Source: Yersinia alsatica (GTDB lineage Bacteria; Pseudomonadota; Gammaproteobacteria; Enterobacterales; Enterobacteriaceae). From it: a stretch of 64,000 nucleotides of DNA. The notes beneath the pieces are model-generated. The model worked only from the letters and a program-made list of their open reading frames with translations. It had not been told where the DNA came from and made no database searches. Within the stretch, counting starts at the first letter, position 1. The number at the start of each line of letters is the position of its first letter. Positions 39,000-61,304 of this stretch are shown piece after piece. The position numbers and the translations under genes are program-made. The DNA lies in contig NZ_CABHWW010000033.1 of the NCBI RefSeq assembly GCF_902170305.1, positions 248,001 through 312,000 on the forward strand. The letters run 5' to 3'.

Positions 39000-39042
39000 T
39001 TTAGGCAACGCAATAATTTAACTGATGAGAAACTGAAAAATT

Positions 39043-39126
39043 ATGTTCTATTCAACCCGTCTACTAAGCCTACTACTTAACGCATCTCTCTTGCGCGGTA
39101 TGTTGGTGGACGGAAATCAGAACTGA
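39043..39126 (+). CDS. leuL: leu operon leader peptide
   Basis: A 27-residue leader, [20 protein letters not shown] followed by LVDGNQN. It has eight leucines, including a run read by CTA-CTA-AGC-CTA-CTA-CTT; the four CTA codons are rare leucine codons, as in the E. coli leader, whose NAS-LRG segment is shared. Ribosome stalling here when charged leucyl-tRNA is scarce would favour an antiterminator over the terminator downstream, switching on leuABCD. Confidence 0.93.
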
Positions 39127-39148
39127 TTCAGCCATCAAGATTAACAAG

Positions 39149-39175
39149 CCCGCGCAAATGCGCGGGTTTTTTTTT
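39149..39175 (+). terminator. leu attenuator (leucine-controlled terminator)
   Basis: CCCGCGC (39149-39155) and GCGCGGG (39160-39166) form the stem, with loop AAAT and a run of nine T residues. It is 23 bases after leuL and 40 bases before leuA, the expected position of a transcription attenuator. Confidence 0.93.
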
Positions 39176-54116: not shown

Positions 54117-54158
54117 AGCCACTTTCACCCGTCCAGATTAATCTCTACAATAGCGCCG

Positions 54159-54409
54159 TCTCAACGGGGTGCAAGAATATCGCTAGCCAGGTTTAACCTA
54201 GTGTCGCAAGTGTTAAAAACATAGCGAGCCGGGTTCAAACAGTGGCGGACAGCACACAGAAACCGGAGCGTACACATGACCTTGTAAATCATGACTACGT
54301 GAAGATTTCGAGTACTGCCCAACACTGTATCAACCGCGGCGCAGCACGTTTTTGCTGAGAGCAAACCCGTCGAACCTGATCCGGTTAACACCGGCGGAGG
54401 GATTTGAGA
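54159..54409 (+). promoter_or_regulatory. TPP riboswitch (THI element) with enlarged P3 arm
   Basis: The P1 strands TCTCAA (54159-54164) and TTGAGA (54404-54409) enclose GGGGTGC (54166-54172) and the conserved 3' half: CTGAGA (54355-54360), ACCCGT, CCTGATCCGGTTAACACCGG and GGAGGGA. GCAAGAA (54171-54177) can pair with TTTTTGC (54349-54355) to close P3, but the intervening P3 arm is about 170 bases instead of the usual few, because it contains a dispersed repeat. The core nucleotides look intact, so thiamine pyrophosphate binding may be kept. It precedes thiB by about 80 bases and would repress the thiamine importer when TPP is plentiful. Confidence 0.9.
54240..54327. repeat. Dispersed palindromic repeat inside the TPP riboswitch (copy A)
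   Basis: CAGTGGCGGACAGC and the inverted ACTGCCCAACACTG (10 of 14 positions) bound the segment. Its interior (CAGAAACCG-AGCGTACA, then TACGTGA-GATTTCGAG) recurs near 58.8 kb. Copy A has about 20 extra bases in its centre, with CATGAC repeated. Confidence 0.75.
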
Positions 54410-54492
54410 AAGATAACACCGCGCCCCCACGGATACGGCTGTTAGCTACCGCCTCAGATACCTTTGCCACCTTTATTCTTAAGGAGTGCAAA

Positions 54493-55482
54493 GTGTTTAA
54501 ACGCATTATTCCCTGCTTGTTCTTGCTGTCCGCGGCCGCTGTTGCTGCTGATAAACCAACCCTGACGGTCTACACCTATGACTCCTTCGCTGCCGACTGG
54601 GGGCCAGGGCCGGCAATTAAAAAAGCCTTTGAAGCCGAGTGCGATTGCCAACTTAAATTTGTGGCGTTAGAAGATGGCGTATCACTGCTAAACCGCCTGC
54701 GAATGGAAGGGAAAAACAGTCAGGCCGATGTGATTTTAGGCTTAGATAACAATCTGGTACAGGCCGCAGAGCAAACCGGTCTATTCGCTCCAAGTCAGGT
54801 GGACACCAGCCACCTCACCTTGCCGGAAAAGTGGCAGAATAAAACTTTCGTCCCTTATGATTATGGCTATTTTGCCTTTGTGTATAACAAAGACAAATTG
54901 AAGAACCCGCCAAAAAGCTTACAAGAATTGGTCGACAGCAAAGAGCCGTGGAAAATAATTTATCAAGACCCGCGCACCAGTACTCCCGGCCTTGGCTTAA
55001 TGCTGTGGATGCAAAAAGTGTATGGCGATAAAGCCCCACAAGCATGGCAACAATTGGCCAAGAAAACCGTCACCGTCACCAAAGGCTGGAGTGAGGCTTA
55101 CGGTCTGTTCCTGAAAGGTGAAGGGGACTTGGTGCTGAGCTACACCACCTCTCCGGCTTACCATCTGATCGAAGAGAAGAAAAGCAACTATGCCGCCGCT
55201 GATTTTAGTGAAGGTCACTATCTGCAAGTTGAAGTCGCCGGTCAGGTTGCCTCCAGCAAACAGCCAGAACTGGCGCAGCGCTTTATGCAATTTATTGTCA
55301 CGCCTGCCTTCCAAGACCATATTCCAACCGGCAACTGGATGTATCCGGTGATCAAAATGACGCTACCGGCCGGATTTGACACACTCACAGTGCCACAAAA
55401 AGCATTGCAATTTGATGCTAAAGAAGTGGCTGATCATCGCGCAAAATGGATTCAGGCATGGCAATCCGCCGTCAGCCGCTAA
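54493..55482 (+). CDS. thiB: Thiamine-binding periplasmic protein ThiB (TbpA)
   Basis: ThiB (329 residues) captures thiamine and its phosphates for the ThiBPQ ABC importer. A signal peptide of about 20 residues (FKRIIPCLFLLSAAAVAADK) is followed by LTVYTYDSFAADWGPGP, LKFVALEDGVSLLNRLRMEG and DPRTSTPGLGLMLWMQKVYG, strongly like E. coli ThiB. The start is a GTG six bases after AAGGAG; a frame opening at 54352 runs through the riboswitch and is rejected. The 3' end overlaps thiP by 25 bases. Confidence 0.95.
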   Translation: MFKRIIPCLFLLSAAAVAADKPTLTVYTYDSFAADWGPGPAIKKAFEAECDCQLKFVALEDGVSLLNRLRMEGKNSQADVILGLDNNLVQAAEQTGLFAPSQVDTSHLTLPEKWQNKTFVPYDYGYFAFVYNKDKLKNPPKSLQELVDSKEPWKIIYQDPRTSTPGLGLMLWMQKVYGDKAPQAWQQLAKKTVTVTKGWSEAYGLFLKGEGDLVLSYTTSPAYHLIEEKKSNYAAADFSEGHYLQVEVAGQVASSKQPELAQRFMQFIVTPAFQDHIPTGNWMYPVIKMTLPAGFDTLTVPQKALQFDAKEVADHRAKWIQAWQSAVSR

Positions 55483-58578: not shown

Positions 58579-58931
58579 AAATTTGTCCGTTAGTTAACAA
58601 CTTGGTGGATTGTCTAGCCCACCGACAAATGAGTCAATCATCAATTAACCCCCGCCATCTGTGAAGTACAAGGATGTTAGCTGCGACCCCAATGACTTTA
58701 GCTAAAAAGCAGTTAATGGGAAAAACCATTAAAATAGACAATTACTGTATAAATAACCATAATAAAGATCTGAAATCTTCAGGCGTTATTGTTGCAGTCA
58801 GTTTGGATGCGGACAGCGCGCAGAAACCGTAGCGTACATAAGTACGTGAGGATTTCGAGCACTGCCCAAGTTCAAAATGACAAATAAAATAGCCTGTACC
58901 TAGTCTAATCGTTTTTTATTAAGGTCGTTTT
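58579..58931. other. yabI-polB divergent intergenic region
   Basis: This 353-base gap contains both promoters, a possible ERIC-like end at 58677-58699 (AGCTGCGACCCCAATGACTTT, the inverse of an end near 48.74 kb) and copy B of the dispersed repeat. No ORF of interest is seen. Confidence 0.5.
58809..58869. repeat. Dispersed palindromic repeat (copy B)
   Basis: GCGGACAGCGCGCAGAAACC ... AGCGTACATAAGTACGTGAG ... TTTCGAGCACTGCCCAA matches copy A at 54245-54322 with few changes and without the central insertion. The centre is the palindrome CGTACATAAGTACG. It lies about 60 bases before the polB start. Confidence 0.78.
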
Positions 58932-61304
58932 GTGGGTCAAACCCGTCAGGGCTTCCTGCTAACTCGCCACTGGCGCGACACGCAGGCTGGCACCGAAGTT
59001 GAATTCTGGTTAGCAACCGATGAGGGGCCACAGCAAGTGAGGTTACCCCCTCAGCCCTCAGTGGCTTTTATCCCGGCCGAACAACGCCAACGGGCCGAAA
59101 CCGTGCTGCGTAATGAACGCCGCTGGCAATTGCGCCCTCTTGAGCTAACCGACTTCCACCAACGCCCGGTTCTGGGGCTATATTGTAGCCAACATCGCCA
59201 ATTAATCCGCCTGGAAAAGCTGCTCAGAGAAAGCGGCGTGAATGTCTATGAAGGTGATATTCGCCCGCCAGAACGTTTCCTGATGGAACGCTTTATTACC
59301 GCACCGGTATGGTTTAGTGGCGAAGAAAATGGTCATGGCCCGCTGCTTAATACCCAAATGAAACCTGCCGAGGAGTATCGCCCAGCCCTCAAACTGCTGT
59401 CGCTGGATATCGAAACCAGCGAGCATGGCGAACTTTATTGCATTGGTTTAGAAGGCTGTGGTCAGCGTCAGGTTTACATGCTCGGCCCGCCAAATGGCAG
59501 TTCGGCGGATGAAGCCGCACTGGACTTCAAACTGGAATATGTCGCCAGCCGCCCGCAACTATTAGAGAAATTGAATCAGTGGCTGGCAGAGCATGATCCT
59601 GATGCCATTATCGGCTGGAATCTGGTGCAGTTTGATTTACGCGTATTACAAAAACATGCTGATCGCTATCAGATCCCACTGCGCTTTGGTCGCGGCGGTA
59701 ATCTGCTGGAGTGGCGTGAACATGGTTTTAAACAGGGGCACTTTTTTGCCTCCGCTGCGGGTCGGCTGATTATTGATGGCATTGAAGCACTCAAATCTGC
59801 CACCTGGAATTTCCCCTCATTTAGTCTGGAATCTGTCTCGCAGACCTTGCTGGGTGAAGGCAAAGCCAGCGATAGCCCCTACCAGCGGATGGACGAAATC
59901 AACCAGCGCTTCGCCCATGATAAACCGGCGCTGGCCCGCTATAACCTGAAAGATTGTGAACTGGTAACGCGGATTTTTGCCAAAACCGAGCTACTCAGCT
60001 TCTTGCTCGAGCGCTCAACAGTCACCGGGCTGGCGGCTGATCGCAGTGGCGGTTCCGTTGCCGCATTTACCCATCTTTATCTGCCACGGATGCACCGTAT
60101 CGGCTATGTGGCACCTAATTTAGGCGAATTACCGGAAGAGCACAGCCCCGGCGGCTTTGTGATGGACTCCCAACCCGGTTTATATGACTCGGTGCTGGTG
60201 CTGGATTACAAAAGCCTCTATCCATCAATTATTCGCACCTTTTTGATTGATCCGGTCGGTTTAGTGGGGGGCATGTCCCAGCCGGATGAAAAGCATTCGG
60301 TACCCGGTTTTCGCGGCGCTTGGTTCTCACGCGACAAACATTGCTTACCTGCCATCGTCAACCAAATCTGGCAGGGGCGAGAAGCGGCTAAACGCCAGCA
60401 AAATAAGCCATTATCACAAGCATTAAAAATCATCATGAATGCCTTCTATGGCGTCTTGGGCTCCAGTGGCTGCCGATTTTTTGATCCCCGGCTGGCCTCA
60501 TCAATTACCTTGCGCGGCCACGATATTATGCGCCAAACCCGTGAATTGATTGAAGCGCAGGGCTATCAGGTGATTTATGGCGATACCGACTCAACCTTTG
60601 TCTGGCTGAAAAGTGCCCATAGCGAGGAGCAAGCATCCCGCATTGGCAAAGCGCTGGTACAGCATGTCAATCAATGGTGGCAGGCGCATATTCGGCAAAC
60701 CTATGATTTACCCTGTGCGCTGGAACTGGAGTTTGAAACCCATTATCGACGCTTTCTGATGCCCACCATTCGCGGGGCGGAGCAAGGCAGTAAAAAACGC
60801 TATGCCGGGCTGATTTCAACCCCAACTGGCGACCAGATGATATACAAAGGGCTGGAGACCGTTCGCACCGACTGGACGCCGCTGGCCCAGCAATTCCAGC
60901 GCGAGCTGTATTTGCGTATTTTCCAGCAGCAGCCTTATCAAGATTATGTGCGAGATTACGTGGCTCGCACCTTGAATGGTGAGTTAGATGAGCAGCTTAT
61001 TTACCGCAAACGCCTGCGCCGACGGCTGGATGACTATCAGCGTAATGTCCCGCCACATGCCAGAGCCGCGCGTCTGGCAGATGAATACAACCGCAAGCTC
61101 GGCCGCCCGCTGCAATACCAGAATGGCGGCTGGATAAGCTATGTCATGACCACGGCTGGCCCCGAACCATTAGAAATCCGACAATCCCCTATTGATTACG
61201 ATCACTACCTAACTCGCCAGTTACAACCGGTGGCAGACGCTATACTTCCCTTTATGCACGATGACTTTACAACACTGATAACCGGTCAGATGGGGTTATT
61301 TTAA
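58932..61304 (+). CDS. polB: DNA polymerase II
   Basis: PolB (790 residues) is a family B polymerase with proofreading, used in replication restart and translesion synthesis and in E. coli part of the SOS response. The exonuclease motif I is [19 protein letters not shown], polymerase motif [16 protein letters not shown], motif [16 protein letters not shown], and motif [12 protein letters not shown]. The start is a GTG preceded by AAGG; no clear LexA box was identified by eye. The E. coli order polB-rapA is preserved. Confidence 0.97.

What the first reader, a model, noticed from the sequence alone, without database searches (positions are those of the whole stretch)
54159..54409. TPP riboswitch with a ~170-base insertion in its P3 arm
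Both halves of a THI element are clear, with matching P1 strands TCTCAA/TTGAGA and the closing P3 pair GCAAGAA/TTTTTGC. Between them, where a short stem is usual, lie about 170 bases that include a dispersed repeat with inverted ends plus a separate hairpin (TCGCTA 54180-54185 with TAGCGA 54222-54227). Core bases appear intact, suggesting the switch tolerates a mobile element as an arm extension. P3 is known to be variable in length, so function may survive, but the composition of the insert is unusual.
Basis: partly seen in the sequence, partly recalled or inferred. Interest (0 to 1): 0.75.

Follow-up and report, generated by a model that had tools for sequence, protein, structure and literature searches.

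The report
Vitamin B1 riboswitch with repeat-built arm
The RNA switch that is expected to sense vitamin B1 in front of a thiamine-uptake operon carries, as one of its arms, an old palindromic DNA repeat that relatives keep, multiply or lose, which shows how an RNA sensor can absorb a repeat element and why standard annotation often misses such switches.

Summary
The thiBPQ leader (54159-54409) is a TPP riboswitch with a 181-nt P3 arm; its 5' half is the one used in short-arm relatives. Of 25 Yersinia genomes 14 have a P3 of 165-202 nt and 11 of 9-36 nt. Most of the arm (54216-54351) is one copy of a palindromic repeat with 3-34 matches per Yersinia genome, 22 here. It does not look recent: the same element, in one orientation, sits in the thiB P3 arm of 19 of 80 named loci from seven genera, with up to four tandem copies (524-nt P3). 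Full-length thiB copies form one clade against sampled dispersed copies (100/99, 100/100); the core alone rejects that (AU p 0.016), which suggests exchange with dispersed copies. Stem pairs covary (58 double-changed cells, 13.9 when shuffled). Rfam's TPP model passes its cut-off in 3 of 19 loci with the element and in 19 of 19 chosen loci without it. Reading: an ancient repeat became a peripheral riboswitch arm. Ligand response is untested, and the predicted fold of this leader does not form the base of P3.

The parts
54146..54151 (+). -10-like box TACAAT of the thiB leader
   Evidence: within 20 nt upstream of CTCAACGGGGTGC in 25 of 25 occurrences in the Yersinia loci; promoter-like scan hit 54124-54151, a consensus match only
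54159..54172 (+). 5' half of the TPP aptamer: P1 strand TCTCA and ACGGGGTGC
   Evidence: same place and sequence in short-arm relatives
54173..54353 (+). P3 arm, 181 nt (9-36 nt in 11 of 25 Yersinia genomes)
54173..54215 (+). 5' spacer of the arm
   Evidence: in 14 other thiB loci the spacer is 0.36 identical between genera, 0.37 when shuffled
54216..54351 (+). palindromic repeat element
   Evidence: model R1, 122.9 bits (this copy is in the training set); 22 matches in the genome
54245..54322 (+). core of the element, the part shared with dispersed copies
   Evidence: up to 94% identity to dispersed copies in other Yersinia genomes
54342..54357 (+). alternative hairpin CAGCA/TGCTG, pairing the element's 3' end with the aptamer's GCTGAGA
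   Evidence: in the minimum-energy fold; not shown to form in vivo
54354..54409 (+). 3' half of the TPP aptamer: GCTGAGA, P2 strand, P4, P5, P1 strand
   Evidence: Rfam RF00059 hit 54325-54419, 61.5 bits; fold
54460..54496 (+). hairpin holding the Shine-Dalgarno-like AAGGAG (54481-54486): likely expression platform
   Evidence: folds (-11.2 kcal/mol for 54460-54500)
54493..55482 (+). thiB, thiamine ABC transporter substrate-binding protein (GTG start)
   Evidence: TIGR01276 thiB 550.2 bits, cut-off 317.15
58780..58899 (+). second copy of the repeat family in the window, upstream of the DNA polymerase II gene
   Evidence: R1 73 bits, E 1.7e-18, not in the training set; gene:

Best explanation
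This is a TPP riboswitch of the thiBPQ operon, probably translational, whose P3 arm was enlarged, before Yersinia, Hafnia, Rahnella and Erwinia parted, by one copy of a palindromic dispersed repeat. Because the element is a hairpin in itself, it extends P3 instead of cutting the aptamer. The arm has been kept as a stem by compensatory changes, is present in tandem in some lineages and absent in many others, at least once with a footprint of deletion between short direct repeats. TPP binding at the intact core is expected to stabilise P1 and let the Shine-Dalgarno hairpin form, so thiBPQ goes down; the arm is peripheral. Shown here by sequence: the aptamer halves, the element, the full-length clade, the covariation, presence and absence. 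Inferred: the age and the single gain (transfer between genera is not excluded), TPP binding, the mode of control, and that the arm leaves it working.
For: 14 of 25 against 11 of 25 Yersinia genomes with long and short P3 at one site, core unchanged. P3 base kept by compensating changes. Element in 19 of 80 named loci with seven genus names, best hit always on the + strand; exact pattern of element end plus aptamer in 17 of 392 family genomes, 6 of 154 genus codes. In 7 genomes, matches over 103 or more of the 121 query positions lie only at thiB, other matches cover the core (BLAST, E 1e-4). Full-length thiB rows are one clade: 21 against 45, 100/99; 21 against 30, independently aligned, 100/100. 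Covariation: 96.8% of cells paired, 58 double-changed cells against 13.9 shuffled, 0 of 500. Between genera: element 0.70, spacer 0.36, fourfold sites of thiB 0.47. Four tandem copies in Izhakiella L114, two in Erwinia rhapontici L083. Footprint in Rahnella inusitata L101 against R. perminowiae L107 with the 7-nt direct repeat AGCAAGT at the junction. An Enterobacter thiBPQ riboswitch was found translational (PMC12632268, passages).
Against: In the window's leader the P3 base has probability 0.01 and the fold pairs GCTG with the element's end. Y. similis has 1 contiguous P3 pair and probability 0 for P2, P3 and P5; in five Rahnella long-arm loci and H. psychrotolerans P5 is 0.22-0.28, and P2 is 0.18 in two of them; over all 27 long-arm leaders P5 averages 0.74 against 0.98 in 64 short ones. 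P1 is low in both Yersinia classes (0.16 and 0.11). The core alone rejects one thiB clade (p-AU 0.016), Hafnia's core grouping with a dispersed copy of a Hafnia-like genome. R1 aligns many dispersed copies end to end as well, at 92 bits or less, against 87.7-140.3 for thiB copies. Without one G-U column, G-U and A-C cells are equal (11 and 12), so the covariation does not tell RNA from DNA pairing. Within genera (24 pairs) the element (0.75) is less conserved than the stretch after the aptamer (0.84). Presence is patchy: 13 changes on the thiB tree, 7 forced by starred branches.
Confidence: 0.7

Rival explanations
1. Recent insertion of a mobile palindromic repeat into the P3 loop in this lineage, simply tolerated.
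For: The core is up to 94% identical to dispersed copies; the family is in 25 of 25 Yersinia genomes; a copy between glnA and glnL in E. coli is present in some strains and absent in others (991 of 5375 matching genomes cover at least 80% of a filled site; empty site).
Against: Arms shared with thiB copies of other genera and not with the sampled dispersed copies, one full-length clade, one orientation in 19 of 19 loci.
Confidence: 0.06
2. Several independent insertions of related elements into the same P3 arm, with a target or orientation preference.
For: Patchy distribution; core-only tree rejects one clade; ERIC, an unrelated element, sits between GCTGAGA and ACCCG in three Serratia loci, so thiB leaders do receive insertions.
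Against: Full-length copies are one clade; no close dispersed relative of the window's arms among 45 sampled (best 0.51); the main groups of the element tree are broadly those of the thiB tree.
Confidence: 0.14
3. The arm is a selected second regulatory domain: for example a processing or protein-binding stem, or an anti-aptamer whose CAGCA end captures the GCTG of the aptamer core. (Not exclusive of the best explanation.)
For: Conservation between genera above the spacer, covariation, the alternative hairpin in the fold.
Against: Absent from many relatives; the palindrome is a property of the whole repeat family; no G-U asymmetry in thiB copies without one column; possible conversion of the core by dispersed copies would also keep it alike.
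Confidence: 0.2
4. The long arm has broken the switch and thiBPQ is unregulated in these species.
For: P3 base probability 0.01 in the window's leader, core helices at 0 in Y. similis, weak P5 in several Rahnella.
Against: Conserved halves and P3 base pairing persist over many species; in long-arm Yersinia P2 is 0.90 or more in 13 of 14 and P5 0.99 or more in 11 of 14.
Confidence: 0.1

Closest known systems
TPP riboswitch (Rfam RF00059), thiBPQ leaders of Enterobacterales
   Same: Conserved halves, P1, P2, P4, P5, place upstream of thiB, hairpin over the Shine-Dalgarno
   Different: P3 of 181 nt (133-168 nt with one copy in other genera, 284 and 524 nt with tandem copies) made largely of a repeat element; the Rfam model at its cut-off misses 16 of 19 such loci
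Extended P3 stems of TPP riboswitches (K. pneumoniae thiC, 24 nt; K. aerogenes, several Serratia; plants), PMC12632268, passages
   Same: Enlarged P3 arm; there P3 nucleotides alter ligand discrimination
   Different: No repeat element and no extension of this size in the passages seen
Rfam RF02228 sX9
   Same: The minus strand of the element's 5' half scores as sX9 in Hafnia alvei (48.0 bits) and Y. aleksiciae (44.6), cut-off 44
   Different: The window's copy reaches only 35.2 bits; here it is part of a palindromic repeat, not a known sRNA gene
ERIC (RU-1), YPAL (RU-2), RU-3 repeats (units printed in PMC2759123)
   Same: Short palindromic intergenic repeats of enterobacteria
   Different: No match of the window's arm to the three published units
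BOX element between two T-box riboswitches upstream of the pneumococcal trp operon, PMC3049150, passages
   Same: Repeat element built into a riboswitch leader that still appears to work
   Different: There the repeat lies between two switches; here inside an aptamer arm

Membership tests
TPP riboswitch (RF00059) | Covariance score over the gathering cut-off | tested here: met
   61.5 bits against 54.3, but with a 5' half taken from inside the arm
TPP riboswitch (RF00059) | Both conserved halves (GGGGTGC; GCTGAGA ... GAACCTGAT ...) joined by P1 and P2 | tested here: met
TPP riboswitch (RF00059) | P3 closed on the C of GGGGTGC and the G of GCTGAGA | tested here: inconclusive
   7 contiguous pairs possible, probability 0.01 in this leader
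TPP riboswitch (RF00059) | Upstream of a thiamine gene with an expression platform | tested here: met
   thiB; Shine-Dalgarno hairpin in the fold
TPP riboswitch (RF00059) | Binds TPP and changes expression | not testable with these tools
   needs probing or a reporter
sX9 (RF02228) | Score over the gathering cut-off of 44 | tested here: not met
   window copy 35.2 bits; 2 of the 19 loci pass
ERIC / YPAL / RU-3 | Sequence similarity to the published unit | tested here: not met
   no match for 54173-54353 at E 1
MITE-like palindromic repeat | Multi-copy, imperfect inverted ends | tested here: met
   22 matches in the genome; stems
MITE-like palindromic repeat | Target-site duplication | tested here: inconclusive
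   none clear at the E. coli glnA-glnL filled and empty alleles
MITE-like palindromic repeat | Mobilised by a cognate transposase | not tested
   no search made

The most novel reading that the evidence does not exclude
A composite riboswitch in which a domesticated repeat is a second regulatory input: the CAGCA end of the element can pair with the GCTG of the aptamer core (54342-54357) and so compete with TPP binding, while the core of the arm is kept in step with dispersed copies by gene conversion, so that anything acting on the repeat family also acts on thiamine uptake.
Probability: 0.12. Interest if true: 0.85.

Novelty: new variant of a known kind. Interest (0 to 1): 0.6.

Why it matters
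If right, a palindromic repeat of the selfish-looking kind has been an aptamer arm across several genera, with tandem expansion and loss preserved as natural experiments. That is a concrete route by which peripheral riboswitch domains arise. It also means that the standard model misses these thiB riboswitches, or gives them a wrong 5' half, in species that carry the arm (3 of 19 found), so censuses may undercount them.

Tried and rejected
Recent insertion: set aside on the arms and the full-length clade. YPAL, ERIC and RU-3: no match of the arm. A reading that dispersed copies insert into loops of host hairpins: outer flanks of 50 copies pair better with their own partner (-14.75 kcal/mol) than with shuffled ones (-12.66, lowest of 60 shuffles -14.0), but in E. 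coli the flanking inverted repeat is part of what differs between filled and empty alleles, so I do not claim it. Strand asymmetry as proof of RNA selection: absent in thiB copies once one column is left out (11 against 12), though dispersed copies have 66 G-U against 5 A-C cells, all columns in. Degenerate remnants in Erwinia persicina L116 and E. piriflorinigrans L117 reach only E 0.53 and 0.19 and are not counted. MITEEc1 as a name for the E. coli copies is a recalled lead; one search gave a listing only and no sequence to test.

Literature: searches listed no paper that I recognised, from titles and starts of abstracts, as reporting a repeat element inside an aptamer arm. I opened passages of nine papers (PMC2759123, PMC2229807, PMC2267715, PMC10969869, PMC3049150, PMC9029176, PMC6337395, PMC12632268, PMC3110155) and read none in full; most subscription papers are not held.

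Biases to know: R1 was built from 23 thiB copies, so high scores of those are by construction; 17 of the 19 positive loci come from genomes with a training row (not L098 and L106). Genome counts are lower bounds (capped candidates, E limits) and include the thiB copy. The 45 dispersed rows are a sample, fetched because they resemble thiB queries. A2 was aligned to R1, hence the second, independently aligned tree of the 51 rows of at least 115 nt (15 shorter rows dropped). Thirteen reverse-strand hits on thiB copies were dropped from the 79 rows of A2. One leader over 420 nt (L114) was left out, whose P1 is four pairs of a slice cut close to the aptamer. One search used 14 of the 19 positive loci. 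The 19 loci are my choice out of 61 without an R1 hit at E 1e-20; the three Serratia loci with ERIC are not among them, and one of these, L061, scores 53.5, just under the cut-off. The thiB protein tree is a quick one.

Full report
What is there. Between sgrR and thiB (NCBIfam) the + strand carries a TACAAT box at 54146, CTCAACGGGGTGC from 54160, GCTGAGA from 54354, the rest of a TPP aptamer to 54409, a hairpin holding AAGGAG, and the GTG start of thiB at 54493. The P3 arm between the halves is 54173-54353, 181 nt. Rfam finds a TPP riboswitch at 54325-54419 (61.5 bits, cut-off 54.3), but takes its 5' half from inside the arm.

The two halves belong together. In 25 Yersinia genomes the same 5' half stands at the same place; 14 have 190-227 nt from the start of GGGGTGC to GAACCTGAT, 11 have 34-61 nt. 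The base of P3 changes on both sides together, for example CAAGAA/TTTTTG, CGGAAAAA/TTTTTTCG, CTAAC/GTTAG. Over 92 aptamers contiguous pairs average 4.47, against 2.19 (highest 2.88) in 2000 re-pairings; for the 14 long-arm Yersinia 7.29 against 5.42 (highest 7.21); for the 11 short-arm Yersinia 4.55 against 3.25 (highest 5.09, so some shuffles reach it).

What the arm is made of. The arm is a 43-nt spacer, a palindromic element (54216-54351) and two last bases. A 120-position model, R1, built from 23 thiB copies has 3 to 34 matches in each of 25 Yersinia genomes, 22 in this one, the thiB copy included, and a second match in the window at 58780-58899, 73 bits, upstream of the DNA polymerase II gene. 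Dispersed copies share a core of about 60-78 bp and differ in their arms. Relatives of the repeat are in 5375 of 5426 complete E. coli genomes, median 5 places. At glnA-glnL 991 of 5375 matching genomes cover at least 80% of a site that carries it; one strain read shows an empty site and two a third allele. The arm matches none of ERIC, YPAL or RU-3 as published.

Old rather than new. R1 finds the element in the thiB P3 arm of 19 of 80 named loci: seven Yersinia, Serratia oryzae, Hafnia alvei, H. psychrotolerans, Ewingella americana, six Rahnella, Erwinia rhapontici and Izhakiella australiensis, best hit on the + strand each time, E 4.1e-22 or lower; 17 of the 19 come from genomes that supplied training rows. 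An exact pattern of element end plus aptamer is in 17 of 392 genomes of the family, 6 of 154 genus codes. In seven genomes BLAST matches over 103 or more of 121 query positions lie only at thiB, although R1 aligns many dispersed copies end to end at 92 bits or less. In trees of the element the 21 thiB rows are one side of a branch against 45 dispersed rows (100/99) and against 30 with independent alignment (100/100). The core alone does not support this: four changes, and one clade is rejected (p-AU 0.016), with Hafnia alvei's thiB core next to a dispersed copy of a Hafnia-like genome. I read this as locus-inherited arms with a core that exchanges with dispersed copies; 63 columns with paired sites could also mislead, and repeated insertion is not excluded.

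Maintained as a stem. On the 23 thiB copies 96.8% of cells pair, 12 of 26 pairs have changes on both sides, 58 cells against 13.9 shuffled, 0 of 500 shuffles as high; structures slid by 1-3 columns have 23-48% paired. The count of further pair types is less clear (26 against 22.5; 30 of 500 shuffles reach it). Between genera (67 pairs of 14 loci) the element is 0.70 identical (shuffled 0.51), the spacer 0.36 (0.37), the stretch after the aptamer 0.49 (0.47), fourfold sites of thiB 0.47; within genera (24 pairs) 0.75, 0.58, 0.84 and 0.55.

Expansion and loss. Izhakiella has four tandem copies and a 524-nt P3, Erwinia rhapontici two and 284 nt. Rahnella inusitata keeps the left end of the element joined to its last bases at a 7-nt direct repeat, AGCAAGT, compared with R. 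perminowiae; R. bruchi has a footprint of the same length with a substitution at the junction. On the thiB tree of 80 loci the character needs 13 changes, 7 forced by starred branches; within Yersinia 6, 2 forced. In three Serratia loci ERIC (78-79% over the full unit) sits between GCTGAGA and ACCCG.

Consequence for annotation. At the gathering score the TPP model reports 3 of 19 loci with the element, each match starting inside the arm, and 19 of 19 chosen loci without it. A Serratia locus with ERIC, not in that choice, scores 53.5, just below the cut-off.

How it most likely works. The conserved halves are intact, so TPP should close the aptamer and lower translation through the Shine-Dalgarno hairpin; an Enterobacter thiBPQ switch is translational (PMC12632268, passages). 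The arm is a hairpin on a hairpin and so need not disturb the core. Against this, the fold of the window's leader prefers a hairpin of the element's CAGCA end with TGCTG of the core, P3 base probability 0.01; the other 13 long-arm Yersinia have 0.20-1.00 except Y. similis at 0, the 11 short-arm ones 0.11-1.00. Long-arm leaders have a lower mean P5 than short ones (0.74 of 27 against 0.98 of 64), mainly through Rahnella. Energy models without ligand and tertiary contacts cannot decide this.

What is known. Extended P3 stems are on record for K. pneumoniae, K. aerogenes, several Serratia and plants (passages), and a BOX repeat between two T-boxes in pneumococcus (passages). I saw no report of a repeat element inside an aptamer arm in the listings of searches.

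Noticed in passing
window 58780-58899: A second copy of the repeat lies upstream of the DNA polymerase II gene (58932-61304), after CTGTATAAATAACCAT, which resembles a LexA box (recalled motif); copies L038, L128 and L140 from other Yersinia follow a similar sequence.
   Followed up: partly
L001 1382-1494 (own genome, C30): An ERIC element (77% over 113 nt) stands directly upstream of another TPP riboswitch of the same genome (L001 1501-1627).
   Followed up: partly
L061, L062, L072 leaders: ERIC between GCTGAGA and ACCCG of the thiB TPP aptamer in three Serratia loci, where the Rfam model has a stem.
   Followed up: partly
L066 2257-2332 (-), L048 2233-2306 (-): Rfam's sX9 'sRNA' family matches the minus strand of the repeat; sX9 is listed among the most prevalent bacterial sRNAs (PMC9029176, passages), which may partly reflect a dispersed repeat.
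   Followed up: partly
L164, L205, L206, L207 (E. coli glnA-glnL): A copy of the repeat present, absent, or replaced by a third sequence between glnA and glnL in E. coli strains.
   Followed up: partly
L183: Two dispersed copies with identical aligned sequence, same strand, 15 bases apart, in Yersinia ruckeri (G021).
   Followed up: no
L085: No TPP aptamer was read upstream of thiB in Candidatus Fukatsuia symbiotica (motif search only).
   Followed up: no
window 39027-39173: Leucine operon leader (RF00512, 115.2 bits).
   Followed up: no
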